Of a DNA stretch of 64,000 nt, positions 17,778-52,115 are shown one piece after another. The DNA is from a virus. The stretch covers positions 1 to 64,000 of IMG/VR virus record IMGVR_UViG_3300040856_003274. One strand, written 5' to 3'. Each line of letters starts with the position of its first letter. The stretch's first letter is position 1. The notes under the pieces are model-generated. The model had not been told where the DNA came from. It searched no databases and saw nothing but the letters and a program-made list of their open reading frames with translations. Position numbers and translations under genes: made by a program.

Positions 17778-17811
17778 GGTCTTTCTCCGTTCATGAGTGG
17801 TTATGGACACC

Positions 17812-36410: not shown

Positions 36411-37478
36411 TCACCTTCTCTTAGAAGCTATTTTCTTAACACCTTTGATTAAGTTATTTTCTAGAAGAGTCGGGCTTATATACCTTTTCCAAAAGTATGG
36501 TGTGAACACTGTCTCGAAGTTAAAAGAGCGGTCATGGTGGCTAATTTGTATTTCCTTAAGGGGACGTTGAAGACCCCAAGGTAAAAAAAGAATTACGTAT
36601 TTGGTTGTATGCTGGGCGAGAGGATCTTCTAAAAGGATTTTTATCTTAAGAGTTTGTTTTAAAACGGGGGATACAATCTCATAAGTACGAGATCGGGTTG
36701 TACTTCTAGAGAGCGTAGCTTTCCACATGTTGGGTTTAGGGGGGTCGCCCCACATCACTTCAATAGGGCTCTCGTCAGAGGCGATTTTTGTGCTACCGCT
36801 CCTTGGCTTTATCCTTATTACGCTACTTATTTCTTTCCAACCCTCACGGCTTTTAACCTTTTCAAACCATGCTTCTGCGGCATGAGTTAAGGTGGCTCCT
36901 GCATTGAACTCAAGCAACTCTGAATAGTAGTAGACCTGTAACTCCCACAGGTAGCTCTCTCTATCCATTGTGTGTATCTGAACCTTTAAGTATTTAGTAC
37001 CGCCTACATTTTTTCGGAAGTCTTTCGCGGTTATCCTTATCGGGCGCTCTATTAGTGGGCTATCTACGGTAAGGCTGAGTTCGTATTCGTCGTAAGAGGC
37101 TTTCCATATATTAGGTTTGGGTGGGTTTCCCCATTGGAGCTCAATCTTAGAAGAAGCGACTTTGTTAGGTGTCTTAAGCTCGTTGTGCTTCACTAGCATT
37201 CTTTTAACGGTGCTCCAAAACGCATGGGAGAGCACCGCTTCTCCATCATCAAGGTCTTCTGTAGGCGCATAGAGACTTTCTTTCCAACTGCCCTGAGCGC
37301 CATAAACAGCAACGAGAGAGATACCCTCTGAGGTACTTTTTTCAAGGGTAATAAAAATAGTCTCATGCCGAAGCGCGGGAGATTGGATGGTATAGGCTTT
37401 CCATCCAGTTTTTAGCTCTCTTACGGTAGCTTTCCACATGTTGGGTTTAGGGGGGTCGCCCCACATCACTCTTAACAT
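36411..37478 (-). CDS. WG-repeat protein A (three modules)
   Basis: 355 residues made of three modules. Each begins WG[DN]PPKPN[MI]WKA (Trp at residues 6, 116 and 243), then has SP.L about 20 residues later, beta strands, and a helical end with Trp/Phe. The linkers are KVASS (106-110), KIASD (231-235) and a C-terminal KIASKRR. I recognise no known family. The DNA for modules 1 and 3 is nearly identical over about 40 bp at 36717-36759 and 37428-37470, so duplication or gene conversion is recent. It lies next to glmM and diverges from the gene at 37536. Confidence 0.8.
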   Translation of the reverse strand: MLRVMWGDPPKPNMWKATVRELKTGWKAYTIQSPALRHETIFITLEKSTSEGISLVAVYGAQGSWKESLYAPTEDLDDGEAVLSHAFWSTVKRMLVKHNELKTPNKVASSKIELQWGNPPKPNIWKASYDEYELSLTVDSPLIERPIRITAKDFRKNVGGTKYLKVQIHTMDRESYLWELQVYYYSELLEFNAGATLTHAAEAWFEKVKSREGWKEISSVIRIKPRSGSTKIASDESPIEVMWGDPPKPNMWKATLSRSTTRSRTYEIVSPVLKQTLKIKILLEDPLAQHTTKYVILFLPWGLQRPLKEIQISHHDRSFNFETVFTPYFWKRYISPTLLENNLIKGVKKIASKRR

Positions 37479-37535
37479 TAGTATTCTCCTTATGCTTAAG
37501 TAAAGTTAACACTTCTGAGTTATATGGAGATTATC

Positions 37536-38507
37536 ATGTCCCAACTAGCGTTACTAAAAGCCCTCCCAAACATCATCCTGGGGCTTTGGATGTCTTTCTT
37601 AAGTTATAAAGCCTACGTGTATTACGGCGACTTAACAGCCCAAAAAACTATCTTGAGGCAGACTCAAGGGCTCTTGAATGAGAAAGAGCGAGAGATGCAA
37701 AAGGAGCACCGAGAGATAGGAGTGTTAAAGTCTAAACTGGTCAAAGACCTCAAAAGCCTAGAAGAAGATGCTTCCCGTCTTAGGCAAATGTATGGAGAAA
37801 GCTCTGAGAAGCTAGACAAGTTTATTGCGAAGCACAACCTGAGGCTCAAATCCTATCAGCGAGCTAACTTCTCCCTGAGGCAGAGGATTGAGTCTGCTAA
37901 GTCTAAACCAAAGGTGACTGTGGTTACCAAAGCGGGGTCGTGTGAAGAAAACACCGAGGTGTATTATCGTTATGAGGAAGAGAATGGGCGCGTAATCTTA
38001 GAGACTCCCAACTGCCTTAAGAATGGTGAAGAGGTCTTGACTCTTAACCAGTCCTTTGTGGTGTATGGAGAGGTTTTCCAACAAGATGGCGGGGCGCTTG
38101 AGGTATCCAGGTTAGTCTTAAAAGAGGTAGACCCTGACAACCCTAAGATCATTCTCGCAAAACCAAAGTTAGTAACAGGTGATTTTAAGTACCATCCTTT
38201 TACGCCTAAACCTAAGCCTGCTAAGCCCTTCAACATAGTGGCTGGAGTCGGGTTTGATAAAGACGGGTTCGCTAACGTCTCTTTAGGTATCTCTCCGCTC
38301 AGGTATCGCCAAGGGTTCTTATCTCTGTCCTATCAAATGTTTGAGCAAGCTAAGGGGATTGATAGGCACGCGATCTCAGCGCGAGTCGGCTGGCGACCTA
38401 AACTCTTTGAGGGAGATTTAAACTTCGGAGTCTCTTTGGGCGTTGGCACACCTGTAACAAGGCTAATCCCTCAATATACTCTGTCTTTTGATTTCTTTGT
38501 TTGGTGA
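37536..38507 (+). CDS. Membrane-anchored coiled-coil protein with outer-membrane-like C-terminus
   Basis: 323 residues from ATG 37536 (GGAG 6 nt upstream; the in-frame ATG at 37524 is worse). One N-terminal membrane helix (LPNIILGLWMSFLSYKAYVYY) and a coiled coil follow (EREMQKEHREIGVLKSKLVKDLKSLEEDASRL). After it come a beta domain and a Pro/Lys linker (PKPKPAKP), and last about 90 residues with alternating hydrophobics ending FDFFVW, as in outer-membrane barrels. The order suggests a bridge from inner to outer membrane, perhaps a one-gene spanin or a tail-associated envelope protein. Inference only. Confidence 0.55.
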   Translation: MSQLALLKALPNIILGLWMSFLSYKAYVYYGDLTAQKTILRQTQGLLNEKEREMQKEHREIGVLKSKLVKDLKSLEEDASRLRQMYGESSEKLDKFIAKHNLRLKSYQRANFSLRQRIESAKSKPKVTVVTKAGSCEENTEVYYRYEEENGRVILETPNCLKNGEEVLTLNQSFVVYGEVFQQDGGALEVSRLVLKEVDPDNPKIILAKPKLVTGDFKYHPFTPKPKPAKPFNIVAGVGFDKDGFANVSLGISPLRYRQGFLSLSYQMFEQAKGIDRHAISARVGWRPKLFEGDLNFGVSLGVGTPVTRLIPQYTLSFDFFVW

Positions 38508-38520
38508 GAGGCAAGTTGTT

Positions 38521-39612
38521 ATGGGTGATCTAAAAGCGCAGTGGGGTAATCCTCCTAAACCTAATATGTGGAAAGTGAGAGAGTACAACCACTCTTCAGA
38601 CAAAGACTACGTGGCTGTTGTCTCTCCTATCTTAAAGAACAACGGTGAGTTTTACGTAATGCGTAACGAAAAGCGAGAGTGGGAAATACGTTACCATGAC
38701 CGCTTCCACATATATATCTCCATTAAGCGTCTGAAAGAAACTCACAGCTTTTTAGAAGTGCGACATTACTTCTTAAGCTCTGTATGCTGGTCAAAAGATA
38801 TCGGGCCGTTCTTAAGAGACAACCGAAACTTCTTCGCAGACGGCTTTTCGACAAAAGTCGCGTCTTCTGTCCTTAAGGCAAAGAAGATTAAGCATCGAGC
38901 TATGTGGGGTGACCCTCCTAAGCCTAACATGTGGAAGGTCGATTTTAGGTGGTATGCTGGAGGTGGCGAGGAGTTTTCTTATTGCTCGGTAGAGTCCCCT
39001 GTCTTAAAAGAGGGGTCTTTTTTCCAGTTGATGTTCGACACCTCAAGTAAAAAATGGACTATTCAATACAGCGGGTCTACTACTTTCCACGTCCACACCT
39101 TTCATAATACAAATAAATTTTTAGAGGCGCGGGATATCTTTTTAAGTCGAAAGGGCTGGAAGATTATCAAGACCTTTGCGCTTATCGCGGGGACAGATTT
39201 CTTCCGCACTAAGGTAGCGTCGTCTTCTTCTAAACTCGAAGCGCATTGGGGTACTCCAGCCAAACCTAATATGTGGAAAGTTGAGGAGTACGAGGAGTTT
39301 GTAGAGGTCACTTCTCCTGTGTTAGGAGACGGTTCTCTTTTGTTAACCTCTCCTGCATATAATGGCACAATCAAATATCACATAGAGTATCACAATAAAA
39401 AACGACATCTTCGGAAACTAGTGATGGAGGTAGACAACTATCCGTATGAGAATGCTTTAAAATGGTTCTTAGGGAGTATGTTTTGGGATAGGAAGTTAAA
39501 AGAGTGGGCGAGTAAGCAACCTTTCCCAGTATTCACAAAAAATAAGATAGCTTCCTCTAACTTGCGGGTGATGTGGGGCAACCCCGTCAAATCTAATCTA
39601 TGGAAGGTCTGA
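38521..39612 (+). CDS. WG-repeat protein B (three modules plus terminal motif)
   Basis: 363 residues from ATG 38521 (GAGAGG upstream; the longer frame starts inside the previous gene). Trp of the WG motif lies at residues 8, 129, 243 and 352. The fourth motif, WGNPVKSNLWKV, is the very end of the protein. Each module has SP.L about 29 residues after the motif and FLS..GW near its end. Linkers are TKVASS (111-116 and 230-235) and NKIASS. The modules are homologous to proteins A and C. Because the final motif has no domain behind it, the motif itself may be the functional or binding unit, or a domain was lost. Confidence 0.8.
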   Translation: MGDLKAQWGNPPKPNMWKVREYNHSSDKDYVAVVSPILKNNGEFYVMRNEKREWEIRYHDRFHIYISIKRLKETHSFLEVRHYFLSSVCWSKDIGPFLRDNRNFFADGFSTKVASSVLKAKKIKHRAMWGDPPKPNMWKVDFRWYAGGGEEFSYCSVESPVLKEGSFFQLMFDTSSKKWTIQYSGSTTFHVHTFHNTNKFLEARDIFLSRKGWKIIKTFALIAGTDFFRTKVASSSSKLEAHWGTPAKPNMWKVEEYEEFVEVTSPVLGDGSLLLTSPAYNGTIKYHIEYHNKKRHLRKLVMEVDNYPYENALKWFLGSMFWDRKLKEWASKQPFPVFTKNKIASSNLRVMWGNPVKSNLWKV

Positions 39613-39652
39613 GGACGAGCTTAGGATTTCTTTATTCCACTTATACCCGCCT

Positions 39653-39671
39653 TTAGGTAGGATCTACCTAA
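39653..39671. promoter_or_regulatory. Perfect 8-bp hairpin before a small gene
   Basis: TTAGGTAG / CTACCTAA with a 3-nt loop, ending 13 bp before the ATG at 39685. It may be an operator, or an RNA hairpin covering the ribosome site. Confidence 0.4.
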
Positions 39672-39684
39672 CAAGGAGAAAAAA

Positions 39685-40170
39685 ATGAGAAGAACAGCTT
39701 CAGAAATACTATCTGACATTAAGGACCTTAAGATCAGAGTCGCTAACTTAAATTATTCCTCTATGGTTACGATTTCATCGGAAGCGCGGAAGCTCCTCGA
39801 CCATGCGCGTACTATACCTGATCTTGCTGCCTCGAATAAGAGTGATCTAGGGACTCTGATGCACATCGGGTTGCCCCCTATAATAACGAGGTTGCATAGA
39901 GCACTTAAGGCTAAGGCTAAGGGTGGTGAGTCCGTGACAGAAATGGATTTAGAGTTGCTTCAGTTCTGTGTGTATCTACACAACGAGCTGGCAAATGGCG
40001 GGGCGTGGACTCTTGAACCTGCACCTGTCAATCAGCAGTTGAACCCTAGAGCTTTTGATGAGGTTTCAGGGGCTCGGTCAGGTTGGGTAGTTGAGACTAT
40101 CGTTCCTAGCATCCCACAAGTAAGCGCACTTAGGGGGCTAGTCAAAGTGACAGCGCGTCGTCCTCAATAG
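39685..40170 (+). CDS. Small protein with MRRTAS N-terminus, second copy
   Basis: 161 residues. The first ~22 residues (MRRTASEILSDIKDLKIRVANL) match the start of the protein at 17400-17777. The rest is different: helical (ARKLLDHARTIPDLAASNK; EMDLELLQFCVYLHNELA) with a C-terminal tail (SALRGLVKVTARRPQ). Unknown function. AAGGAG precedes the ATG. Confidence 0.65.
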   Translation: MRRTASEILSDIKDLKIRVANLNYSSMVTISSEARKLLDHARTIPDLAASNKSDLGTLMHIGLPPIITRLHRALKAKAKGGESVTEMDLELLQFCVYLHNELANGGAWTLEPAPVNQQLNPRAFDEVSGARSGWVVETIVPSIPQVSALRGLVKVTARRPQ

Positions 40171-40214
40171 TTGTTCACCTTTCTATTCGTTCATTAAGAG
40201 CGACACTAGAAAAG

Positions 40215-40508
40215 CTAAAGACTCTTGAGTAGGTGAGGAGGGATCTCTTTCCCATAGATTTTCCTGAGTCTAAAAGATACGTCCTTGTGCGCGTCTTTAT
40301 ACTCAGTAAAGAATAAAGGGGCTCTTTGTTCCCATGCCTTGTAGCCGATTTCTTTGACGAGCTCAGCGATCTTGTAAGCATCTACTTGGTGTATGCAATC
40401 TTTAATCGCCTCAGAGCCTTTTACGGGCTCTAATGTTACAAACAGCATGAAGATTTGATTAGCCTGCTTGTATCTCTTAGCTACTCTGCGTGCTTGCTCT
40501 TTTCGCAT
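40215..40508 (-). CDS. Small basic protein
   Basis: 97 residues. MRKEQARRVAKRYKQANQ gives a basic helix of the RVA.RY type seen elsewhere here. The rest is alpha/beta (IFMLFVTLEPVKGSEAIKDCIHQV). Unknown. It is alone on the minus strand between two plus-strand genes. Confidence 0.6.
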   Translation of the reverse strand: MRKEQARRVAKRYKQANQIFMLFVTLEPVKGSEAIKDCIHQVDAYKIAELVKEIGYKAWEQRAPLFFTEYKDAHKDVSFRLRKIYGKEIPPHLLKSL

Positions 40509-40566
40509 AGACTTCTAGCCTCTCAGTCATGGTGTTTATCAAAAGCTAATATCAGAGGTTTAGTGT

Positions 40567-40595
40567 TTGACAAGCGTAATCCCTTCCGATGTTAT
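40567..40595 (+). promoter_or_regulatory. Candidate sigma70-type promoter for the thymidylate genes
   Basis: TTGACA (40567-40572), 17 bp, then TGTTAT (40590-40595), 34 bp before the tdk start. The -35 is perfect and the -10 has four of six consensus bases. It is the best-looking host-type promoter in the window. Confidence 0.5.
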
Positions 40596-40629
40596 GAGCT
40601 TTATCAAGCCACGTCGGAAAGGAAAAAAA

Positions 40630-41214
40630 ATGGCGCTCACCTTTTATTACTCTACCGTTAATGCGGGTAAGACCGCGAAGCTCATCTTAGACGCGCACGC
40701 GCACAAGAGTCGAGATGTTAAGACTCTTGTCTTGCTACCTGAGATCGCGCTCTCAAGAGAAAACGGTAATACTCTCTCATCAAGAGCAGGGCTTTCTTGT
40801 GAGATTACATCTTTGCCTGACGGTGGTTGCCCTCACAGCCTTGTGAGCGATCTTAATGAGCTACCTGAAGTGGTCTTCATTGACGAGGCGCAGTTTCTCA
40901 CCCCAGCTCAGATTAGAGGTCTTTGTAATATTACAGACCTCCTTAACATCCCTGTATTTGCTTTTGGACTACGTACTAACTTTTACGGTGAGCCTTTTGA
41001 GGGGAGCATTTATCTCATGGCATGGGCAGATAGGATCGTAGAGATACCTACACCGTCAACGAGAGAAAAGCATGTTTTCGCGACAATGAACATTAGAGTG
41101 TGTCCTGAGACTAAAGAGCGCGTATCAGGAGAGAACGGGATTGAGGTAGGCTTTAACTTTGAGCCTGTAAGCAGAAGGTATTTTAATCTTAATGAGAGAT
41201 GGGAAGAAAAATGA
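40630..41214 (+). CDS. tdk: Thymidine kinase (type II)
   Basis: 194 residues from ATG 40630, with GGAAAGG upstream. Walker A is STVNAGKTA (8-16), followed by the switch FIDEAQFL (about 83-90) and FGLRTNFYGEPFEGS, which is the lid/thymidine side of type II kinases. It phosphorylates thymidine to dTMP with ATP. The C-terminal zinc cysteines of cellular enzymes appear reduced, as in some phage forms. Its stop overlaps the DHFR start (ATGA), and thyA follows: a dTMP operon. Confidence 0.9.
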   Translation: MALTFYYSTVNAGKTAKLILDAHAHKSRDVKTLVLLPEIALSRENGNTLSSRAGLSCEITSLPDGGCPHSLVSDLNELPEVVFIDEAQFLTPAQIRGLCNITDLLNIPVFAFGLRTNFYGEPFEGSIYLMAWADRIVEIPTPSTREKHVFATMNIRVCPETKERVSGENGIEVGFNFEPVSRRYFNLNERWEEK

Positions 41215-41699
41215 TTGCACTAATCGCCGCTGTCGGCGCAAAACTAGGTATCGGCTTTAATGGTCAGCTCCCTTGGGGGCATATTAAGAAAGACATGTCG
41301 CACTTTAAGCGTGTGACAAAAAACAGCACGCTCATTATGGGACGCGCTACCTACGAGTCGATAGGCAGACCCCTCCCTGATAGAGAGATGTTTATTGTGT
41401 CGAGCACATTAGAGCCTAATGACCATATTCGAGTTTTTAAGGATATACCCACAGCATTAGAGGCTTGTAAGACCGAAGACATATTCTTTGCTGGTGGTGT
41501 CCGTATTTACGAGGAGGGTGCTAAATACGCAGATAGGATATACCTTACTATGCTCTCTTCAGAAGCTGAGGCAGACACTTACTTCCCTAAGCAAATACTT
41601 ACTCCTGAAGAGTGGGTAGTCATAGATCATTCGCATGATTATGACTCCGACTCAGATGTGAGGCTCAGCTTCTTCACATTTGAGCGAGAGGTGGCTTAA
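41211..41699 (+). CDS. folA: Dihydrofolate reductase
   Basis: 162 residues from ATG 41211 (GGGAAG upstream, overlapping the tdk stop). The N-terminus IALIAAVGAKLGIGFNGQLPW, the catalytic acid Asp28 (KKDMSHFK), NADPH-binding MGRATYESIGRPLP and GG.RIYEE all fit. It reduces dihydrofolate, regenerating the cofactor used by thymidylate synthase next door. Length is standard for bacterial DHFR. Confidence 0.93.
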   Translation: MIALIAAVGAKLGIGFNGQLPWGHIKKDMSHFKRVTKNSTLIMGRATYESIGRPLPDREMFIVSSTLEPNDHIRVFKDIPTALEACKTEDIFFAGGVRIYEEGAKYADRIYLTMLSSEAEADTYFPKQILTPEEWVVIDHSHDYDSDSDVRLSFFTFEREVA

Positions 41700-41702
41700 G
41701 GT

Positions 41703-42497
41703 ATGTCAGAGCAAGGTTACATTAACTTAGCTAAGAAAGTGCTCTCAGAGGGCGAATACCGCGCTGATCGAACAGGTGTGGGTATTTATTCTCTCTTCGG
41801 TGAGCAAGTCAAGTATGATCTCACAGAAGGCTTCCCGTTGCTCACCTCAAAGAAAGTCTACTTTAAAGGTGTAGCATACGAGCTGATTTGGTTTTTGAGC
41901 GGAGATACTAATATTAAATTTCTGCAAGAAAACAAAGTGCGGATATGGGACGAGTGGGCTGACTCCGAAGGTAATTTAGGGCCTGTCTATGGCAAGCAGT
42001 GGAGAGATTGGAGCGGTGTAGATCAGATCGCTAATCTTATAGAAGAGCTTAAGTCTAATCCGACTTCGCGTAGGCATCTAGTGAGCGCATGGAATGTTAG
42101 TGAGTTAGCAGAAATGGCGCTCCCCCCTTGCCACATGACCTTTCAGTTTTATGTGCGCCGAGGAGAGTATTTAGACTGCCAGCTTTATCAGAGGTCTGCT
42201 GATCTTTTCTTAGGCGTACCTTTCAACATCGCCTCCTACGCGCTCTTAACTCATGTGATCGCTAAGCTAACAGGACTTAAAGCTGGCGTGTTTACGCATA
42301 CAATGGGTGACGTACATATCTACTCCAATCACCTAGATCAGATTAAGGAACAGATTAGAAGATTTGAGAACGAGCCTAGACCCCTCCCTCAGATAGAGCT
42401 TCAGCCGATTGATAACATAGACTCATTTTGCTACGGAGACATAAGAATAGCGGGGTATGATCCTCACCCTCCTATCAAAGGTACGGTGGCGGTCTAA
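41703..42497 (+). CDS. thyA: Thymidylate synthase
   Basis: 264 residues, close to the E. coli length. RADRTGVG, the nucleophile Cys143 in [36 protein letters not shown] and [13 protein letters not shown] are all present. It converts dUMP to dTMP with methylene-tetrahydrofolate, giving dihydrofolate for the neighbouring DHFR. Three bases separate it from folA; AGG lies just upstream. Confidence 0.96.
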
Positions 42498-42547
42498 ATT
42501 CTATATACCTTCGATAGTCACAGACTAGTAAAAGACTAGGAGGTACT

Positions 42548-43624
42548 ATGAGACACCTGACAGCTCGACAAAGAAAATCAAAACTTAGGCTTCACTTAGA
42601 CACTCACGTTAGTAGGCTTGTGCGGGAGTTTAGAAGTCATCTTGATATGTACATTATGAGCAACAAGGACGCTCTGATTAAGAGTATAGGGGATAACTTC
42701 GACTCTCGTATCTCTCCCATCATTGACTCGATCCCTAGCCATGAGACAGACAGTGATTTTTTTAGAGGCGGTGTTTATGTGTCTCTCTCTTACTTCAACT
42801 CAAGAGATCCTATCCAATCTTACTTTAAAAACGGTTACGGGGTTGAGGAGACTCTTGCTAATCTAATAGAGCAGACCACAGATCGAGGAGATTTTTCTTT
42901 AAGCGATGCTTACGACAAGTGGTTTTACTATTACAGCCCTCTCTTAGCGCGGGCATTAGGTAAGGTTAAGATACAAACTAACCCTTTCCTTGTAGATGCT
43001 TACAAAGGTAAGGCGCTTAACTTCTTCTCTCATAGCGCACTCTCTGCCTTTTCGATTTTAAGCCACCTGCTGAGATTTTTTAAAGCACCTGGACTTGTGG
43101 TAGAGGCGGCTCTTGTTGCGCTCTTCGCACCTAAGAAGAAAGCTGTAGAGAGACACCTTAATATTAAGACTGCTTCTGTAAAGGTAGCCCAGCGATACCT
43201 AATCGCTAAGGCTCTCGAAGATGACGAGAAGCGAGACATCTATAACAGGTGGCATAAGCTCATCAACATGACACAGAAAGAGCTAGAGGATTGGGGGGAC
43301 AACCCTGAGCGCCTAAAAGCCTCTCTCAACAGGCAGAGAGCCAAAGAGGAAGGGGGCATACAGAGCGGTTATGACTCTTTCCGAAGAATAGTGCGTCGTA
43401 AGTCGAAGCCCTTCAAAGATTGGTCGCCACAAGACTTCCAAAACGCTCAACAAGAGATAAACTTTAACACTCGTATGCTTGGGAACAACCCGGGTCAACC
43501 TGTGAACAAAGACATTATGAAATCTAAGTGGGAGATTAGCCTGCTTAACTGGGGGCATGACCCGTCTAAGAAAAGCTCACCCTCATATGGTAAATGGAAG
43601 GCATGGAAAGATGACCTTGAATGA
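42548..43624 (+). CDS. Two-part protein, unknown
   Basis: 358 residues. Residues 1-195 are helical (DTHVSRLVREFRSHLDMYIMS; FLVDAYKGKALNFFSHSAL) with a hydrophobic stretch (APGLVVEAALVALFAP). A junction NIKTASVKVAQRYLIAKAL follows. Residues about 225-358 form a different module (RDIYNRWHKLINMTQKELEDWG, SGYDSFRRIVRRKS, MLGNNPGQPVNKD, LLNWGHDP) resembling a small conserved module I have seen in other phage proteins but cannot name. The junction carries the KTAS element. It overlaps the next gene by 14 bp. Confidence 0.6.
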   Translation: MRHLTARQRKSKLRLHLDTHVSRLVREFRSHLDMYIMSNKDALIKSIGDNFDSRISPIIDSIPSHETDSDFFRGGVYVSLSYFNSRDPIQSYFKNGYGVEETLANLIEQTTDRGDFSLSDAYDKWFYYYSPLLARALGKVKIQTNPFLVDAYKGKALNFFSHSALSAFSILSHLLRFFKAPGLVVEAALVALFAPKKKAVERHLNIKTASVKVAQRYLIAKALEDDEKRDIYNRWHKLINMTQKELEDWGDNPERLKASLNRQRAKEEGGIQSGYDSFRRIVRRKSKPFKDWSPQDFQNAQQEINFNTRMLGNNPGQPVNKDIMKSKWEISLLNWGHDPSKKSSPSYGKWKAWKDDLE

Positions 43625-43994: not shown

Positions 43995-44020
43995 ACCCGC
44001 ATAGCTAGGAGGAAGTAGCT

Positions 44021-44671
44021 TTGATTACCTACAAAAACAAGAATAGACGGTTATTCTCCGCAGATGATAATGAGAATGTGATCCTAATCTCCGCACCTCA
44101 GCAGAGTGGGGGAGGTGAGCCTAAGGCAAGAGAGATTGTGACGGAGGGGACTCACATCTATTTCTTCCAAGACGTGACCACGGAGAGTGTACAAGATTTA
44201 GTGGTGACTCTTAGAAGGATGACCGCGAGCATCTTAGAGTTTACGACGGATTTAGAGCTCCCTGAACCCCCTCCTATCCATCTCCACATCAACACCAACG
44301 GCGGGGACGCTTTCGCTGGTTTTTCAGCATCTTTCTCTATCGCTTCTAACCCGATCCCTGTTTACACCTACGTAGACGGTCAAGTTGCTTCCGCAGGTAC
44401 GTTTATGTCTCTCGCGGGCGCGAAGCGGTTCATGCAACCTCAGTCCTTCATGCTTATCCATCAAGTCTCATCGGGTGTGTGGGGTACTTATGCTGACATT
44501 GTGGACGAGAAGGAGAGCCTTGACCGCATCATGGAGAAGGCTAGAGAGCTCTACAAGAAATACACTAAGATTAGCGATGAGAGGCTCGATGATCTCCTTA
44601 ACGGCAACCTTTGGCTTAACGCAGAAGAGTGCTTAGAGCTGGGCTTCGTTGATGAGGTACAAAAAAGTTAG
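44021..44671 (+). CDS. ClpP-like serine protease
   Basis: 216 residues from TTG 44021, with a strong AGGAGGAAG upstream. The ClpP/crotonase fold is clear: LHINTNGGDAFAGFS, nucleophile Ser124 in DGQVASAGTFMSLAG, His147 in SFMLIHQVSSGVWG, and the C-terminal LWLNAEECLELGFVDEV. The catalytic Asp is probably in SDERLDD. The first 35 residues are extra. Phage ClpP homologues act in head maturation or with host ATPases. It could process the many (K/R)xAS-containing proteins, but there is no direct evidence. Confidence 0.9.
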   Translation: MITYKNKNRRLFSADDNENVILISAPQQSGGGEPKAREIVTEGTHIYFFQDVTTESVQDLVVTLRRMTASILEFTTDLELPEPPPIHLHINTNGGDAFAGFSASFSIASNPIPVYTYVDGQVASAGTFMSLAGAKRFMQPQSFMLIHQVSSGVWGTYADIVDEKESLDRIMEKARELYKKYTKISDERLDDLLNGNLWLNAEECLELGFVDEVQKS

Positions 44672-44727
44672 TGTAGCTTTTGGGAGAGGTAGTGTATAGG
44701 GGACACTCTTAAGAAAGGAGTCCCAAT

Positions 44728-45321
44728 ATGCTACCGCCTATCGAGGCTATCAAAAACTTTGTCTTAATGACTCAACTCTTGTCTTCAAGCTGGGGTGTAC
44801 CTCCTCAGCAGATTGATGACGCACAATGTTACCTCTTTGAGCTAAGCCATGCTATCGCTCATTACTCTGAGGACAAAAACCAACAACTCATGTATTTGAC
44901 TATTGCGGCTCAGGAGTCAAAGTTTAGCTTTGACCACCCAAACGACGAGCCCTCAGTTAACCCGAAGTCAGGTGCTTGTGGCCCTTATCAAATCGTCCCG
45001 AAGTGGGCTGTACCTAAAGATTTACCTGCTGATTGCAACGAGCTTCACGACCCTTATGACGGCACTTGGAGACTCCGAGAGGCGCTCTCAGCCATAGCAA
45101 AGATGGTGAAGCCTAAGAATGTGATGTGCTATTATGCTACAGGTGACCTTGAGTGTACCCATGAGAAGACTCCTTACTCACGCGTACACTCAAGACTAAA
45201 GGAGAAAATACGCAGAGAACGTGCTAAGATAGATAAATACGGCAAGTACGCTTTAAAGATCGTAAGACTCACGCTTCAAAACAAGTGTTCGCGTGGGCAA
45301 AATTCAGAGCCACTCAGGTAA
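44728..45321 (+). CDS. Lytic transglycosylase-like (SLT) enzyme
   Basis: 197 residues. LTIAAQESKFSF with the likely catalytic Glu63, and SGACGPYQIVPKW, the SLT G.YQ..P block, identify a lysozyme-like fold. The C-terminal ~50 residues are basic and helical. It would cleave peptidoglycan, during entry or lysis. There is no signal peptide, so it needs a holin or virion delivery. AAGAAAGGAG precedes the ATG. It converges on the glycosyltransferase at 45304. Confidence 0.78.
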   Translation: MLPPIEAIKNFVLMTQLLSSSWGVPPQQIDDAQCYLFELSHAIAHYSEDKNQQLMYLTIAAQESKFSFDHPNDEPSVNPKSGACGPYQIVPKWAVPKDLPADCNELHDPYDGTWRLREALSAIAKMVKPKNVMCYYATGDLECTHEKTPYSRVHSRLKEKIRRERAKIDKYGKYALKIVRLTLQNKCSRGQNSEPLR

Positions 45322-46143
45322 TATCTGAGCCTCTAAATCTAAAGCGTAAAGCAAGTCAGCAGTGCGCTTCCCATAGCCTTTATTTAAGACTTTCTTAGGG
45401 TCGTTGACAAAATCATGTGACCCTAGCTTCGACGTGTACTTGTCAAAGCTCCAAATGTTCGTCTGAGTCTTAATGTCTAAAGGTACAAAGTTAAAGTCCT
45501 TACAGACGACTTTCCGCTCTCCTTTAGAGAAGCCTTCAAGTAGCGGATTGAGCTTCCTTGTCATCTTGATGTCCATGTTGCGGTTAATGTCATCAGGCCA
45601 CAGCTTCCAGTCTGCTTTATCAAGAAGAGCTCTACTCACACATCTACCTAGACCTAAAGTTACACCGTAGTTGGAGTGACCTTTAGGGTAATAGAAGTGG
45701 ATCATCTTCTTTGTAGAGGACTCAAAGAAGTAAATGTCTTGTATACCAATGTACGGGTATCCTTGAAATAGGAACCTAGCGTAGAGAGCGATCAGATCAA
45801 CAGGGAGCAAGTCATCGGTGTCTACAAACAGCACCGCGTCTATCTCTACTTGCCAATCTCTAATCTTTTCGAGCGCCTGATTACGTTTAGCAGACACGGG
45901 AGTATTAGGGCGCTCCATATAGTTGTAGTTGTGCCTCGATGCCAAGGAACGACTGTACTCACCTTCAGACCCAACCGCGAAGAGATAGAGCCCTATATTT
46001 TTCTTTAAGAGCTCTTTTTGAACATGGTTAAACCACTTAAATGTAAAGTCCGTCAGCACTTGCCTGCGCCACATCGTGGTAAGTATTGCGATGTTGGTTT
46101 TTTGAGGCGCAGGGTTCTGTTCGGCGTGAGTATATTCAATCAT
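45304..46143 (-). CDS. Glycosyltransferase (GT-A like)
   Basis: 279 residues. A beta-alpha start (NIAILTTMWRRQVLTDFTFKWF), RNQALEKI before the metal site FVDTDDLLP (D108, D110, D111) and a C-terminal NIWSFDKYTSKLG fit a GT-A transferase. The end matches the cut gene at the left edge. Donor and acceptor are unknown. It overlaps the SLT gene by 18 bp on the other strand. Confidence 0.75.
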   Translation of the reverse strand: MIEYTHAEQNPAPQKTNIAILTTMWRRQVLTDFTFKWFNHVQKELLKKNIGLYLFAVGSEGEYSRSLASRHNYNYMERPNTPVSAKRNQALEKIRDWQVEIDAVLFVDTDDLLPVDLIALYARFLFQGYPYIGIQDIYFFESSTKKMIHFYYPKGHSNYGVTLGLGRCVSRALLDKADWKLWPDDINRNMDIKMTRKLNPLLEGFSKGERKVVCKDFNFVPLDIKTQTNIWSFDKYTSKLGSHDFVNDPKKVLNKGYGKRTADLLYALDLEAQILPEWL

Positions 46144-46191
46144 GTCTTCGCCTTTATAAAAAATTGGGTGGTTTCTGAGATTTAAAGTGTA

Positions 46192-46208
46192 GATAGGTTG
46201 ACCCTATC
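46192..46208. promoter_or_regulatory. Small hairpin in divergent gap
   Basis: GATAGG / CCTATC with a 5-nt loop, 18 bp before the ATG at 46227 and in the divergent gap upstream of the glycosyltransferase. A possible operator for one or both genes. Confidence 0.3.
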
Positions 46209-46226
46209 ACAATATGGAGAAAAGAA

Positions 46227-46610
46227 ATGGGTAACAACTTCCTCACCATCCAAAGACCTGTCGAGATCACAGAAGAGAGGTTTGAAGACCTTCTTTGCAA
46301 CGCTCTCGAAGGCGGAGTCTCTTACTGGGCTGACATCGACACGTCGATCCACCCTCCTCAAGAAGGCGATGAGAACATCGAGTTTCCTCACCTCGCGTTC
46401 ACTCATCCTAAGTACGTCATTCATGTCGTTGACCGTGAAGATGATGGGAACACCTTTAGGTTGAAGCTCGAAGACCTTAAGAAGGGTTTTGAGATTTGGG
46501 CTAAAGACTGTCCTTATCACTTTGAGAATTTTCTCAAAGAGGAAGATGACGCGATCACCGCAGATACTTTCTTCCAATGTTGTGTTTTTGGAGAGGTCAT
46601 TTACGGGTAG
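46227..46610 (+). CDS. Unknown conserved-looking phage protein
   Basis: 127 residues. ALEGGVSYWADIDT, HVVDREDDGNTFRLKLEDLKKGF and DAITADTFFQCCVFGEVIYG form a layout I recognise from other phage proteins without a named function. It is acidic, with no enzyme motif. It converges on topoisomerase IB with a 14-bp overlap. Confidence 0.65.
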   Translation: MGNNFLTIQRPVEITEERFEDLLCNALEGGVSYWADIDTSIHPPQEGDENIEFPHLAFTHPKYVIHVVDREDDGNTFRLKLEDLKKGFEIWAKDCPYHFENFLKEEDDAITADTFFQCCVFGEVIYG

Positions 46611-48168
46611 TCTTAGTCCTCTTAGTCCTCTTAGTGGACTTGGTACGCTTTGTCCTCTTAGTGGACTTGGTACGCTTTGTCCTCTTAGTGGACTTGGTAG
46701 CCTTAGTCCTCTTAGTGGACTTGGTGGACTTGGTAGTCTTAGTCCTCTTGGTGGACTTGGTAGTCTTAGTCCTCTTGGTCGCTTTTGGCGAGCCCCCTGC
46801 GCTCTGCAAGGCTTTTGTCAGAAAGACCTCAGGATCAAACCTAAGCTCAGTTTTCTGTTGAGTAAGTAAATCCTCTAGGTTGTCTTCTACAGCGCCCTCA
46901 GAGAGGAAACGCAAGAGCACCTGAGGGTTGATATAAGAAGAGTAAGTAGTCTTGACGCTCCTATGGCTCAAGTCTTGTTGTGATTTAGCATACGCTCTCT
47001 GTACCGCTTCCAAAACAGCAGTTGTGATCTCTTGCTTCATCTTCTTCTTAGCGAGCGCCTTAAAAGAGCCTACTTTGACATAGAGGTCAGCCTGCTCCTC
47101 TTTAAGGCTTTCCAAGATAGATCGAGTCGCCTTGAGCTTACGGAAGTCGGTCATCCTCAACCTACGGAGTTTCTTCTTTAAATAGGTGTTGACGATGGAC
47201 TGAGTGAGTACCTTTCCGTCATCAAAGACGAAGATAAACTTGCTACCTGCATCGCTACCCCTCTTTGTGCTCACTCTCCCTACCATGTCTTTTAAGACTT
47301 TGACGATCTGAGCGTCTCTCAGCTCAGCGACGTTGACTGTTGTCCTCTTCCCCACAAACTTGAGTTGGGCGACGTTAGCCCTCACAAACTTAATGTGTTT
47401 GGGCATAAGGGTGATCGCACCAAAAGTCTCCTCATACTCATCAGTGTCTGACTTGTAAACTTGGTTACCATGCTCACCTGGGCGGATACCAGTCTCCATA
47501 AGAATTGACACAACAAGCGCCTTAATCTTAAGAGAGCTGTCTGCGCTCCTAAGGTCTTTCAAGACGCTCTTTCTAATCTTAGCGTAGTTAGCTACCAGCT
47601 CCTTCTGCACCTCGATCTTCTCGCCTAAGTTTTCAAACTTCTCCCTAAAGCGATTGTAGAGCTTCGTGATCTTACCCGATCTGTCCGTCTCAACAACAAG
47701 ACTATCAGGAAGAAACTCAAAAAACTCTTCGCCTAGCTTCGCTTTGATATTGCGTGCGCTCTTCTCATTCTCCATGTCCCTATAGTTATTCTTCATGGAC
47801 GGAGCGATGCGCTGGAGCTCATCGTCTATGCTGAGCTCCCTAAAGTGGACGTTCCTGATCACATACGCGCACGCGCTTGTGCGACTAGACGCGCCCTTGT
47901 AGCCCTCACCGATATATCTCTTAGCGAAGTTGAGGAAATCTCTCTGCGTCACAAGATGCTTAGTGAAGATACGCTCTGCTTGACTAGGGGTCTTACCGAT
48001 TTTTTTCGCCGCTTGTAAGGTTTTCTTAGCGACAGGCTTGTACTTGTTAGAGAGCGTCTTCAGCGCCCTTAGCATAGCCTGATGGTGTCTCTCCCGCGCT
48101 TTCTCGTCGCGAGTATACATACGGCTATATTCTGTCTCTTCTCTAGCTAGTAAGTCCATCATTTGCAC
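46597..48168 (-). CDS. DNA topoisomerase IB with Lys/Thr/Arg repeat tail
   Basis: 523 residues. A helical N-terminal region is followed by the type IB catalytic core: ILMETGIRPGEHGN (catalytic Arg), a KFVGKR basic strand, MTDFRKLKATRSI (the D-(F/L)-R region) and KTTYSSYINP, where Tyr412 is the probable nucleophile. It relaxes supercoils by single-strand nicking. Residues 462-523 are a KRTKSTKRT tail, coded by 27-bp repeats. Unusual cargo for a phage; similar enzymes occur in poxviruses and some bacteria. Tyr assignment is by position. Confidence 0.85.
   Translation of the reverse strand: MQMMDLLAREETEYSRMYTRDEKARERHHQAMLRALKTLSNKYKPVAKKTLQAAKKIGKTPSQAERIFTKHLVTQRDFLNFAKRYIGEGYKGASSRTSACAYVIRNVHFRELSIDDELQRIAPSMKNNYRDMENEKSARNIKAKLGEEFFEFLPDSLVVETDRSGKITKLYNRFREKFENLGEKIEVQKELVANYAKIRKSVLKDLRSADSSLKIKALVVSILMETGIRPGEHGNQVYKSDTDEYEETFGAITLMPKHIKFVRANVAQLKFVGKRTTVNVAELRDAQIVKVLKDMVGRVSTKRGSDAGSKFIFVFDDGKVLTQSIVNTYLKKKLRRLRMTDFRKLKATRSILESLKEEQADLYVKVGSFKALAKKKMKQEITTAVLEAVQRAYAKSQQDLSHRSVKTTYSSYINPQVLLRFLSEGAVEDNLEDLLTQQKTELRFDPEVFLTKALQSAGGSPKATKRTKTTKSTKRTKTTKSTKSTKRTKATKSTKRTKRTKSTKRTKRTKSTKRTKRTKTTRK
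46611..46785 (-). repeat. 27-bp tandem coding repeat (topoisomerase tail)
   Basis: Units of 27 bp, reading nine residues each (KRTKRTKST type), with partial and shortened units. They code the C-terminal tail of topoisomerase IB and are prone to length change. Confidence 0.75.
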
Positions 48169-48203
48169 TCTCCTTTTGATGAGAGCACATTAGAGAGAGA
48201 TTA

Positions 48204-49418
48204 TTAAAACAAGCTCCCTTGTATGCCCCCTCCTGCTCTCATCTCGCCCCTGACCTCACTAAAGCGTGGTAAGTAGAAGTCGAGGCGGGGCTTCCACCCC
48301 ATATTGTCCTTGATGTATTGAGGCTCAGTCACTTCTTGCTTAGAGAAAGTCCCCCAAAAACGACATATGCTCATATAACGAACACCTCTGTTAACGTTAA
48401 GAACATAGCCGTTGTCATTTGCCTGCTTCAACACCCACCCTAAGAAATAGTACGGTAGCGTGTCTTGGTAAGGTTTAAACTCTAAGTGGTCTGCATCAAA
48501 ACCGTATCTGTTCCTAATGCTTATTCGGTTACGGAAGAGGGGGGCGTTGAGATATTCACCTCCAAAAGTCAGGAAGAATACACCCTTTTTGCGGAGGCGC
48601 TTCCATATAAGCTGGAGGAGGTCATACGAGTTAGAGAAAGGGTCGAGGTCTATGAAGTCATAAGTGCGCTTTGTGCTCTTAATAAACTCTATGTTGTCTC
48701 CCAAATGCCAAACCGCGCTAGGGCATCTCTGCTTACCTTCGTTATAAAACTCTTCCTTGATCTCTACTACGTCGATGTGAGCTTTAGGGAACGCTTGCCT
48801 GACAATCTCAGCAGAGTGTCCTAATCCTCCATAAGCATCTAAAGCAGACCGTATCTTAATGGGAGTGTCTTTTAGCTCCAGCTCGTTTACAAACCACTTA
48901 TGGTCTGTGGAGACTTGATTTCTCTTCTTGCCATGCCCTCGGTTGATCATCCTCTCCGAGACAAAAGTCAGCTCACAGTTTAGAGCGATAGAGATTTTCC
49001 ACAGAGGTAAGCCTGCTTCGTAGAGCTCATCGGCGCAGTCTTTGTTCCAGTTTTCTTTACTGTCGATACGGGCGCACTTAGTGTTTTTGAAAGTGTCCCC
49101 TCTAACCTTACAGATTGCGCTGATCGCCATTTGTAGGTCTTTAGGGTTACGGTTGTATTTACACACAAGGTCGAAAGAAGACATGCCTGCCTTCCAATCC
49201 GCGTAAGCGCCCTCTCGCTCAGTATTCGTCCACCGTTTTCTTGTCGGCGCGACCTTGAGCAGGTGCTCTTTCCCTGAGTACGGAATTCTATACTTATCGA
49301 GTATCTGTAAGACCAAAACTCGGCTCTCCTCTAAGATTAGGGCGTTTGAGACATCGCTTAAAAGCATAATAAACCAAGACCTGTAGCCTGTATAGCCTTT
49401 TAGAGAGGATGCTACCAT
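48204..49418 (-). CDS. Trm1-like methyltransferase with N-terminal helix-turn-helix region
   Basis: 404 residues. The C-terminal half is a SAM-dependent methyltransferase: ALDAYGGLGHSAE (about 192-204) and catalytic DLDPFSN (257-263), which resembles the DxDPFG motif of tRNA guanine-26 dimethyltransferase Trm1. The N-terminal half has two HTH-like segments (ADWKAGMSSFDLVCKYNRNP; LYEAGLPLWKISIALNCEL), so it may bind DNA instead. The start ATG at 49418 shares CATG with the opposite gene, and a later in-frame start near 49367 is possible because no clear ribosome site is seen. Target unknown. Confidence 0.65.
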   Translation of the reverse strand: MVASSLKGYTGYRSWFIMLLSDVSNALILEESRVLVLQILDKYRIPYSGKEHLLKVAPTRKRWTNTEREGAYADWKAGMSSFDLVCKYNRNPKDLQMAISAICKVRGDTFKNTKCARIDSKENWNKDCADELYEAGLPLWKISIALNCELTFVSERMINRGHGKKRNQVSTDHKWFVNELELKDTPIKIRSALDAYGGLGHSAEIVRQAFPKAHIDVVEIKEEFYNEGKQRCPSAVWHLGDNIEFIKSTKRTYDFIDLDPFSNSYDLLQLIWKRLRKKGVFFLTFGGEYLNAPLFRNRISIRNRYGFDADHLEFKPYQDTLPYYFLGWVLKQANDNGYVLNVNRGVRYMSICRFWGTFSKQEVTEPQYIKDNMGWKPRLDFYLPRFSEVRGEMRAGGGIQGSLF

Positions 49419-49638
49419 GAAGAGAATAACTCTAATACTCCTAATCTCGTTAGGCGCTTGCGACGAGAGCGCCCAGCTTGAAGAACCTAAGACACTCTGC
49501 GAACAAGTGTCTGATAAACTCTACGAGTGTATCGGAGGCAGAGTACCTATTACCTACTGCTCACAAGAAACTGCGGATTATATACTCAACGCACCCTGTG
49601 AGGATGTGCTTGAGTTTATTAGAGGCTCTCAGCGGTAA
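49417..49638 (+). CDS. Small lipoprotein
   Basis: 73 residues. MKRITLILLISLGAC is a clear signal peptide with lipobox L-G-A-C, so it should be lipid-anchored in a Gram-negative envelope. The mature part is acidic with four further cysteines (LCEQ, YECIGG, TYCSQE, APCED) that could form two disulphides. It could be an exclusion or lysis protein. Its ATG overlaps the ATG of the divergent methyltransferase in one CATG. GAGAGGA lies 7 nt upstream. Confidence 0.75.
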   Translation: MKRITLILLISLGACDESAQLEEPKTLCEQVSDKLYECIGGRVPITYCSQETADYILNAPCEDVLEFIRGSQR

Positions 49639-52115
49639 TACCAAATATTAGGCTTAGCAGAAGTACCCCACATAGCTTTTAAGCCCTCAGAGGAAGCCAC
49701 CTTACGTCTCAGGTGAATATGAGGCTCTATTTTGCGCCAAAATGCTGTGCTCTTGAGAAGATACTCTATCTTGTGCTGTGGAGCATTTATATCGAACGCA
49801 TAGAGCTTTACATCAGCCTTACCTGGAGCGCCGTGATAGATCACATTGCCGTATTCAGCATAGTAAACAATGACCCCTACCATAAGAGGTGAGGTAATCG
49901 CCCAATTCCCGTAATCGTTAACATTGACTTTCCAAACGTTAGGCTTAGGGGGAGTACCCCATTTGAGCTCAATCTTTTTCTTATTTGGTGACGCTATGCT
50001 AGCAACCTTAGGGATAGTGAGATTAATCTTCCCTGACTGGATAGCAGGCTTAATGACATTCTTCCAAAGTGCAGGATGCGCCATTAGCTCTACGCTAAGC
50101 TTAAGACTATGCTTATCTAAGAGTTTGAGCGTAACTACTTCCCCGCCTCTCTCCATATACTCTAGCTTAGAGTAAGAGCCTTGCTTAAACGTGAGGAAGA
50201 TGCTCCCAACCATCGCAGGTGAGTGTACCACGTAGCCCTCTTCACCTCTACCCGTAAACTGTAGGAGCTTGTTCTCTACCACCTTCCACATATTAGGTTT
50301 AGGAGGGTCGCCCCATTGGAGCTTAATGTCTGTCGGAGGCGCAAGCCAGTCATTCGCGATCTTCATGGATTTCCACCCGCCAGTCATTTTTTCAGGATGC
50401 CTTTTCTTAAACAGTTTTACTAACTCCCAACCCTTAGGGCTCAAATAAAAATCAACGGCGCTCTGAAAGTCATCCTTAGTCCTGTGTCTTGAGAGGACTT
50501 CTCTCCCATAGCGGCTCTGATAACTGAGCTCCCAAGCACCTTGCCACCTGCCGATGCTAAACACGCTCTTATCAAACGCTGAAGAGATGATTAAACCAAT
50601 AGGTTGGCCTGCCTTTTCAGGGTTAGGGCTGTAGACTATCTTAGTCTTCCACATGTTAGGTTTAGGAGGATCGCCCCACTGAACCGTATAACTTCCGCTG
50701 TCAGAAGCTACTTTGGTATTAAACGCTTCTATCGAGAAGTTGCCTAGGGCGCTCTTTATCTGAGCCCAACCCTTTTCGCTCAAGAAGAAGTCTAGCGCCT
50801 CTTCAAAGTTAACACGCTCGCTCAGAAAACTATGTAAATCTTCATATGGGTCGCCGTCGTCTCCTTCAAAAATGATGTACCACCGACCACGAAACTTAGA
50901 CAAAGTAATAGATGTGTGGGGGAGGAGAACAGGAGAAGTTACCACTGCTTGCCCGTCATTCTCGCTAATCTTAATTACAGACACCTTCCACAGGTTAGGC
51001 TTAGGAGGGTCACCCCACATAGCTTTTAAGCCGTTAGAGGAAGCCACCTTGGTTTTAAAGATACCACCCTTCTTTCGCATAAAATCTTTAATCCAACTCC
51101 AGCCCTCTTGACTTAAGAAACGATCTCTCGCCCTCTCAAAAGTGTTAGCTTCAAACTCTATAATATGGTGCTCTTCGTTGTAAGGATTAAAAGATACCTC
51201 CCATGTACCCTCCGCTAGCTCCGTGAGCGTAATGTTCGACATATTTCCGCCGTAAAGATTAGGGCAAGTGACCTCCATCCACTCCCTCTCCCGATAAGCA
51301 CTATCACGATAAGTACCCGTTTTGACTTTCCACATGTTAGGTTTAGGCGGGTCACCCCACATAACTTTTAAGCCACTAGAGGAAGCTACCCTTGTTTTGA
51401 AGACCTGCTTTCCACCTCTCGATGACCTTATCGCTAACCAACGACCTATCATGTCCCAACCCTTTTCGCTTAAGAAAATAGATAACGCTTTCTCAAAGTC
51501 AGGAGCCGAAAACGTACCTATCCTTTCATAAACGTCGTCCATGCTAGGGGAATACTCTATCGACCACTTATCTAATCCTTCGAGCCACCGTAAATAAAAA
51601 GAAGTGTCTTCCCCCTCAAGGAGAGGCGACTCAACAACCGCTTGCCCTCCCCCAAGATCAGATCTGTCTACCCAAACCTTCCACGCATTAGGCTTAGGCG
51701 GATTACCCCAACGAGGCTTAAGATTAGGCGCAATATCCATAGATGCCACCTTCGAGCCCCCATGCGTTAACTTGATCCTCCCGTCAAAAATCTTAGGCTC
51801 GACGTAGGCTTTATAAAACTCATGGGACGTGATCTCGCTAAGAGGCATATTAGGATGGTTTCTAGGCTCTAAAGAGATCACGTCTGAGTAGTAATCCTCA
51901 ACGTATCCGCTACAAGCAGAGGCTCGCACCTTAGGGTCATGTACGATCCTAATGTAACCCTTTATCAAAGGGGAGCTCACTCGAAGCGTCTCGCTAATAA
52001 CAATGTGTCCAGGAGGCTTTAATTCTTGCTCCACTTTCCAAATGTTAGGCTTAGGGGGATCTCCCCATTGAAACTTAATGTCGTGTCTCGGCTTGAGCTT
52101 AGTATCATCCATCAT
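49629..52115 (-). CDS. WG-repeat protein C (seven modules plus terminal motif)
   Basis: 828 residues from ATG 52115 (GAGGAG upstream; a second ATG follows at once). Trp of WG[DNT]PPKPNxWK lies at 17, 136, 253, 367, 480, 601 and 719, with a degenerate eighth (WGTSAKPNIW) at 816 that ends the protein. Spacing is 97-121 residues. Modules carry SP[LVA][LM] about 30 residues on, FLS.KGW near the end, then K[VI]A[SN] linkers. Two are shorter and lack FLS.KGW. It is homologous to proteins A and B. Function unknown; no signal peptide. It overlaps the holin-like gene by 11 bp. Confidence 0.8.
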   Translation of the reverse strand: MMDDTKLKPRHDIKFQWGDPPKPNIWKVEQELKPPGHIVISETLRVSSPLIKGYIRIVHDPKVRASACSGYVEDYYSDVISLEPRNHPNMPLSEITSHEFYKAYVEPKIFDGRIKLTHGGSKVASMDIAPNLKPRWGNPPKPNAWKVWVDRSDLGGGQAVVESPLLEGEDTSFYLRWLEGLDKWSIEYSPSMDDVYERIGTFSAPDFEKALSIFLSEKGWDMIGRWLAIRSSRGGKQVFKTRVASSSGLKVMWGDPPKPNMWKVKTGTYRDSAYREREWMEVTCPNLYGGNMSNITLTELAEGTWEVSFNPYNEEHHIIEFEANTFERARDRFLSQEGWSWIKDFMRKKGGIFKTKVASSNGLKAMWGDPPKPNLWKVSVIKISENDGQAVVTSPVLLPHTSITLSKFRGRWYIIFEGDDGDPYEDLHSFLSERVNFEEALDFFLSEKGWAQIKSALGNFSIEAFNTKVASDSGSYTVQWGDPPKPNMWKTKIVYSPNPEKAGQPIGLIISSAFDKSVFSIGRWQGAWELSYQSRYGREVLSRHRTKDDFQSAVDFYLSPKGWELVKLFKKRHPEKMTGGWKSMKIANDWLAPPTDIKLQWGDPPKPNMWKVVENKLLQFTGRGEEGYVVHSPAMVGSIFLTFKQGSYSKLEYMERGGEVVTLKLLDKHSLKLSVELMAHPALWKNVIKPAIQSGKINLTIPKVASIASPNKKKIELKWGTPPKPNVWKVNVNDYGNWAITSPLMVGVIVYYAEYGNVIYHGAPGKADVKLYAFDINAPQHKIEYLLKSTAFWRKIEPHIHLRRKVASSEGLKAMWGTSAKPNIWYYR

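What the first reader, a model, noticed from the sequence alone, without database searches (positions are those of the whole stretch)
36411..52115. New-looking WGxPPKPNxWK repeat family: 15 motifs in three proteins
Proteins at 36411-37478, 38521-39612 and 49629-52115 consist of ~100-125-residue modules that each begin WG[DNT]PPKPN[MILVA]WK. I count 3, 4 and 8 motifs (the last of B and C are degenerate). 13 modules have a domain; two proteins end right after a final motif. Modules are joined by K[VI]A[SN] linkers. I recognise no known family. The DNA of two motifs in protein A is near identical over ~40 bp, so copies are still being made. The pattern suggests a polyprotein cut at the linkers, or a string of binding domains, on the virion or secreted.
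Basis: partly seen in the sequence, partly recalled or inferred. Interest (0 to 1): 0.78.

Follow-up and report, generated by a model that had tools for sequence, protein, structure and literature searches.

The report
Phage head proteins strung as polyproteins
A giant bacterial virus carries about 40 divergent copies of one small, previously unknown protein domain, strung together like beads and separated by short sites that look like the cutting sites of its head-assembly protease, which suggests it makes an internal cargo of many different small proteins from a few long precursors.

Summary
The repeat is real and larger than reported. The window holds 13 full modules plus 2 stubs. The rest of its 168-kb phage contig carries five more such proteins, giving 36 full modules in 8 ORFs. 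A sister phage (2 contigs) carries orthologues and a ninth gene. No Pfam, PHROG, NCBIfam, PADLOC or PDB family matches. A confident AlphaFold model (pLDDT 88, five strands and two helices) has no significant Foldseek match.

All 36 module ends carry [KR][VIL]A[SN]; only one [KR]xA[SN] lies inside 3,762 residues of domain body. [KR]xAS is the signature of this phage clade's head proteins: enriched 3-6-fold around most of the capsid genes sampled, conserved at residue ~24 of the head maturation protease, recurring after its catalytic domain and in the putative scaffold. One array protein also contains an unrelated domain that is stand-alone in relatives, and it begins at such a site in both. Another starts with a copy of the major capsid protein's N-arm.

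Best reading: head-protease-processed polyproteins that load the head with many small, fast-evolving internal proteins, probably ejected like T4 internal proteins. Cleavage and head location are inferred; there is no virion mass spectrometry. The ejected role and targets are guesses.

The parts
36411..37478 (-). Array protein A (355 aa, 3 modules, ends KKIASKRR)
37152..37463 (-). A module 1 (WGDPPKPNMWK ... NKVAS)
36777..37133 (-). A module 2 (WGNPPKPNIWK ... TKIAS)
36423..36752 (-). A module 3 (WGDPPKPNMWK ... KKIAS)
38521..39612 (+). Array protein B (363 aa, 3 modules + stub)
38542..38865 (+). B module 1
38905..39222 (+). B module 2
39247..39555 (+). B module 3
39574..39609 (+). B stub, degenerate motif WGNPVKSNLWKV right before the stop
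49629..52115 (-). Array protein C (828 aa, 7 modules + stub)
51741..52067 (-). C module 1
51381..51710 (-). C module 2
51039..51359 (-). C module 3; modelled with its 7-residue leader (pLDDT 87.6, pTM 0.80; disordered KVAS tail)
50703..51017 (-). C module 4
50352..50678 (-). C module 5 (ends KIAN)
49998..50315 (-). C module 6
49692..49961 (-). C module 7; modelled with its leader (pLDDT 80, pTM 0.73, same element order)
49632..49670 (-). C stub WGTSAKPNIWYYR right before the stop

Best explanation
The arrays are precursors of internal head proteins of a jumbo myophage related to Bacillus phage G and to a large uncultured clade. Each ~100-130-residue module is an independently folding small alpha/beta domain. 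The K[VI]AS linker at its end is a site of the phage's head maturation protease, probably cut [KR]xA|S. The array proteins would be carried into the prohead, perhaps by the invariant WGxPPKPNxWK segment, and chopped there into single domains during head maturation. The released set of about 40 divergent small proteins stays in the head with the DNA and is most likely ejected into the host, working like T4 internal proteins or P1 Dar proteins (host takeover or anti-defence). Shown here: the domain, linker and register anatomy; linker identity with the clade's head-protein motif; module gain/loss and fast evolution. Inferred: cleavage, location in the head, the order of events. Guess: ejection and targets.
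For: (1) 36 of 36 modules end in [KR][VIL]A[SN]; only one [KR]xA[SN] lies in 3,762 aa of domain body; leaders of proteins A, B, E, F (5-9 aa) match the shorter linkers (6-8 aa), so first modules start where a cut product would start. (2) [KR]xAS is enriched in non-array proteins: sister phage 80 seen vs 24.6 expected, maximum 41 in 200 shuffles; own contig 51 vs 29, maximum 45; reversed, acidic and AA/GS controls are flat or nearly so. Around the MCP gene of 12 IMG/VR relatives and LR745208 it is 1.2- to 6-fold over expectation, in most 3- to 6-fold, but not raised in two own tail-region stretches. In two relatives sampled end to end the total is about 2.5-fold over expectation and among the strongest around the head genes. 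(3) The head maturation protease itself has [KR]xAS near residue 24 in 16 of 21 diverged homologues (1.5 expected) and K-x-A-[SA] after its catalytic domain in 13 of 21 (2.9 expected); the 544-aa putative scaffold has conserved sites in 36, 32 and 28 of 41 homologues with only 12% conserved columns. (4) Array protein H also contains two unrelated domains bounded by the same sites; its C-terminal domain is stand-alone in relatives (L128, L076) and begins right after a [KR]xA site there too. (5) Array protein G starts MTSPLRLRRDYG, matching the MCP arm after its presumed cut (KLAA|SMTQPLRLRRDY); the only other non-MCP case with a K-x-A-S site among 1,868 ORFs is KHA|SLTQPLMNRRDYG in L144. (6) The sister's two-module gene lies in the terminase-proximal structural region. 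(7) The KVAS tail is the only poorly modelled end (pLDDT 49) of a confident domain. (8) Modules evolve fast (dN/dS 0.28-0.73) against 0.05-0.08 for other parts of H and 0.09 genome median, and the sister H lacks exactly modules 3 and 5. Precedent: T4 internal proteins are small, propeptide-cleaved, ejected, poorly conserved, and IPI is an anti-restriction protein (PMC9026906); SPN3US gp245 prefers Ser at P1' (PMC10052503).
Against: No cleavage or virion data exist. The protease, MCP and terminase were seen in the sister contig, not on the window's own fragment. The MCP site is KLAAS, not exactly KxAS. Five proteins keep a KVA[SN]-type site 2-6 residues from the C-terminus, where cutting would release almost nothing. 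Phage G, a distant relative, shows no clear enrichment (3 vs 1.4), and two IMG/VR relatives (L067, L093) show little. No array module was found in 21 related records or two relatives sampled end to end, so the arrays are not an essential head part. T4-type N-terminal targeting tags were not identified on most arrays.
Confidence: 0.62

Rival explanations
1. K[VI]AS is an uncut packaging or docking tag: array proteins are carried into the head intact and each module keeps its own tag.
For: KVA[SN] is kept at the very C-terminus of A, D, E, F and G where a cut would release 2-6 residues; [KR]xAS often sits in short tag-like contexts such as KMASDIVDRWLITAS.
Against: The same motif marks the ends of the protease's catalytic domain and the boundary of a domain that is stand-alone in relatives, which is what processing sites do; 36 tags in 8 proteins is far more than packaging needs.
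Confidence: 0.17
2. Intact strings of binding domains, on the capsid or tail surface or secreted.
For: Tandem divergent domains with conserved spacing and fast evolution could be host-facing adhesins.
Against: No signal sequence is apparent, no significant match to an Ig-like or lectin fold in the model searches, no tail-fibre family match, motif enrichment absent from own tail-region stretches, domains joined by the head-protease motif.
Confidence: 0.08
3. Cytoplasmic early proteins (multi-domain host-takeover factors) never packaged; KVAS is a conserved C-cap of the fold.
For: Arrays are scattered on both strands among metabolic and nucleotide genes; the linker is as conserved as the WG motif.
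Against: KVAS is the disordered end of the model, and the identical motif marks unrelated head proteins; the H and G features point to the head.
Confidence: 0.1
4. Decaying selfish repeat: modules spread by local copying through the conserved motif DNA without a job.
For: Two degenerate stubs and a 45-bp identical stretch.
Against: All 36 modules are open with invariant residues; dN/dS between sisters is below 1; synonymous positions in the motif are mostly randomised.
Confidence: 0.03

Closest known systems
T4 internal head proteins (IPI, IPII, IPIII, Alt)
   Same: Small alpha/beta proteins, poorly conserved between related phages; in T4 they are targeted to the prohead core, cut by the head protease and ejected, and IPI blocks a restriction enzyme (PMC9026906).
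   Different: T4 makes them as single genes with an N-terminal targeting propeptide cut by gp21; here many paralogous modules are strung in precursors with [KR]xA-S linkers. No sequence or fold match was found.
SPN3US/phiKZ inner-body and ejection proteins (prohead protease gp245)
   Same: A jumbo-phage head protease with many substrates and several cuts per protein; Ser preferred at P1' (PMC10052503).
   Different: gp245 cuts after A-X-E; here the motif is [KR]xAS, and the products would be tandem homologous domains rather than propeptide plus mature protein.
Phage P1 Dar proteins (DarA, Hdf)
   Same: Internal proteins (DarA cut by the prohead protease), co-ejected with DNA, anti-restriction (PMC12810830).
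   Different: Single-gene proteins, not described as tandem arrays of homologous modules; no similarity found.
Nematode polyprotein allergens (ABA-1)
   Same: Logic of one long tandem precursor cut into many small homologous proteins (PMC3079579, abstract).
   Different: Animal lipid-binding proteins; analogy only.
Herpesvirus assemblin and scaffold
   Same: A capsid maturation protease that releases itself and its scaffold at release and maturation sites (PMC4498786); from general knowledge these are Ala|Ser bonds.
   Different: No homology of the arrays; membership of this phage protease in the assemblin fold was not modelled here.

Membership tests
Any described domain family (Pfam, PHROGs, NCBIfam, PADLOC, PDB) | Profile or fold match to the module | tested here: not met
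   nothing above curated cut-offs; best Foldseek matches insignificant (TM-score at most about 0.5)
Head maturation protease substrates of this phage clade | [KR]xA[S] sites at domain boundaries and absent from domain bodies | tested here: met
Head maturation protease substrates of this phage clade | Actual cleavage by the protease | not testable with these tools
   needs enzyme assay or N-terminomics
T4-type internal proteins | Small, fast-evolving alpha/beta domains absent from close relatives | tested here: met
T4-type internal proteins | Sequence homology to IPI, IPII or IPIII | tested here: not met
   no such match
T4-type internal proteins | Presence in the head and ejection into the host | not testable with these tools
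   no virion available
SPN3US/phiKZ ejection proteins | A-X-E cut sites | tested here: not met
   all 36 module ends carry [KR][VIL]A[SN] instead
Tail-fibre or Ig-like binding-domain strings | Ig-like/beta-sandwich fold or fibre family match | tested here: not met
   five strands and two helices, no significant fold match; no fibre PHROG

The most novel reading that the evidence does not exclude
A virus that builds an injected arsenal as polyproteins: about 40 diversifying effectors on one new fold share one entry motif (WGxPPKPNxWK) and one protease cut (KVA|S), so that new effectors can be added or dropped as whole cassettes and delivered with the genome.
Probability: 0.35. Interest if true: 0.88.

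Novelty: new variant of a known kind. Interest (0 to 1): 0.72.

Why it matters
Internal head proteins are known in T4, P1 and phiKZ-type phages, but tandem polyprotein strings of dozens of paralogous ones were not found in the papers searched. If true, it gives a readable cut-site code for the head proteome of a large, environmentally common jumbo-phage clade ([KR]xA|S), a new small domain family, and a natural cassette system for loading many different proteins into a capsid and perhaps into bacteria.

Tried and rejected
Flavobacteriaceae hit L026 (WGIPPKPNLWK): chance motif in a CarboxypepD-like protein, no module. Foldseek best hits (TreTu toxin, Hsp70 substrate domain, polo boxes, phage G gp30): not significant; the small ORFs beside the phage G MCP were read and are not WG modules. 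Nearby ClpP-like protease (44021-44671) as the cutter: set aside, because the clade's dedicated head protease carries the [KR]xAS signature itself. DNA condensation by basic modules: mean net charge only +3.5, range -5 to +11. Shared late promoter (TATAAC about 50 bp upstream of A, D and H): too few cases. The repeat finder was called with the wrong strand and replaced by self-BLASTN. Phage and plasmid collections gave no match.

Full report
Check of the observation. A has 3 modules, B 3 plus a stub, C 7 plus a stub. The window is the first 64 kb of a 168,266-bp virus contig. Reading the rest of that contig in pieces gave five more array proteins: D 85365-86387(+), E 86384-88144(+) and F 88146-90332(+) in a row, then G 160278-162620(+) and H 162632-165382(-) tail to tail. 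In total there are 36 full modules and two stubs. Between modules the identity is about 25%, yet W1, G2, P4, K6, N8, W10 and the linker Ala are invariant.

Distribution. A scan of IMG/VR for WGxP[PA]K[PK]NxW gave only two contigs from one sample, whose gene order suggests two pieces of one sister genome. The sister has orthologues of H, G (its last modules) and F (last module), and a ninth two-module gene at G001 22.3-23.1 kb. One genome-collection hit is chance. Phage and plasmid collections have none. The sister contig also holds terminase (phrog_9), portal (phrog_16240, 1e-32), head maturation protease (phrog_18299, 8e-12) and major capsid protein (phrog_2522, 4e-50). That capsid protein has over 500 IMG/VR relatives (the 80 listed are 88-100% identical) and cultured kin in Tunturi_5 (48%) and Bacillus phage G (38%). 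None of 21 large related records, nor two relatives sampled end to end and searched with an unfiltered profile, has a module. The family is therefore an expansion restricted, so far, to one narrow phage lineage.

The domain. AlphaFold models of two different modules (C3, pLDDT 87.6; C7, pLDDT 80.0) give the same order of five strands and two helices. Neither has a significant match in PDB, and C3 has none among viral models. Profile libraries are silent. The WG motif lies in the modelled part just before strand 1; the KVAS end is disordered.

The linker. Every full module ends in [KR][VIL]A[SN], and only one [KR]xA[SN] is found within 3,762 residues of domain body. Leaders before the first module of A, B, E and F are as long as the shorter internal linkers, so the first module starts where a cut product would. 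The same signature is over-represented in the phage's other proteins (sister: 80 [KR]xAS against 24.6 expected, maximum 41 in 200 shuffles; own contig: 51 against 29, maximum 45), while reversed or acidic controls are not. In relatives it is enriched around the capsid gene, and it is not raised in two own tail-region stretches. It is conserved where a maturation protease would be expected to act: near residue 24 of the protease itself (16 of 21 diverged homologues, 1.5 expected), just after its catalytic domain (13 of 21, 2.9 expected), and at conserved sites of the putative scaffold (36, 32 and 28 of 41 homologues). I infer that [KR]xA|S is the head protease cut. MCPs of the clade read KLAASMTQPLRxRRDY, and a relative's protein L144 reads KHA|SLTQPLMNRRDYG.

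Ties of the arrays to the head. H contains, between and after WG modules, two unrelated domains framed by K[VI]AS or KKAS. Its C-terminal domain is a stand-alone protein in relatives (L128, L076), where it starts just after an N-terminal ...RVAS...KxA|ASG leader, as it starts after KVAS in H. G begins MTSPLRLRRDYG, the capsid N-arm; among 1,868 ORFs the only comparable non-capsid case with a K-x-A-S site before it is L144. The sister's ninth gene lies in the structural block before terminase.

Evolution. Between the two sister phages the modules change fast (dN/dS 0.28-0.73; 75-87% identity) while the other parts of the same protein H are conserved (dN/dS 0.05-0.08; 95%) and the genome median is 0.09. 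Sister H lacks exactly modules 3 and 5. The motif DNA is mostly synonymously randomised, with a few recent local copies. This is the pattern of a diversifying cargo carried behind a fixed handle.

Mechanism. Shown: anatomy, register, near-restriction of [KR]xA[SN] to module ends, shared head-protein motif, module-exact gain/loss, fast evolution. Inferred: array precursors enter the prohead, are cut by the head protease into about 40 different ~100-130-residue proteins, and remain inside. Guess: they are ejected and act on host defences, as T4 IPI (PMC9026906) and P1 Dar proteins (PMC12810830) do. The main weak points are the lack of any virion data, the retained KVA[SN] next to several C-termini, and the head genes being read from the sister genome.

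Verdict. A new domain family and a new arrangement (tandem polyproteins) of a known kind of thing (protease-processed internal head proteins).

Noticed in passing
window 35024-36406(-), 56356-57123(-); contig 96526-98274(-) (L010:12526-14274): The phage encodes GlmM, a GlmU-type uridylyltransferase domain and GlmS, covering most of the UDP-GlcNAc pathway, plus a nucleotide-sugar dehydrogenase at 2566-3792.
   Followed up: partly
contig 90329-91966(-) (L010:6329-7966): Phage-encoded ATP-type phosphoenolpyruvate carboxykinase (pckA, E 3e-220), next to the array genes D-E-F.
   Followed up: partly
L062 4868-7627, L093 4688-7555, L113 3409-6435, L100 127-2124: The head maturation protease genes of relatives carry intein-like inserts at two different positions.
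   Followed up: no
window 4238-4765(-), 17400-17810(-), 39685-40170(+), 55736-56305(-), 61860-62843(+): Many small ORFs start with a tag such as MRRTASEIL or MNKMASDIVDRWLITAS: probable head-targeting propeptides built on [KR]xAS.
   Followed up: partly
window 44021-44671(+): ClpP-like protease matching phage head maturation proteases of another type (phrog_94, 6.5e-40) between arrays B and C.
   Followed up: no
window 46597-48168(-): Protein with a C-terminal tail of many short (S/T)KRTK-type repeats.
   Followed up: no
L144 14119-15582(-), L131 17191-19542(-), L142 2108-4498(+): Relatives have other proteins with several [KR]xA[SAN] sites (L144 with 4, including one before a capsid N-arm mimic; the other two with 9 and 10 [KR]xAS): possible further multi-cut head proteins.
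   Followed up: partly
upstream of A (about 37529), D (about 85309) and H (about 165430): TATAAC about 50 bp before the start codon of three array genes; a possible late promoter, too few cases to judge.
   Followed up: no
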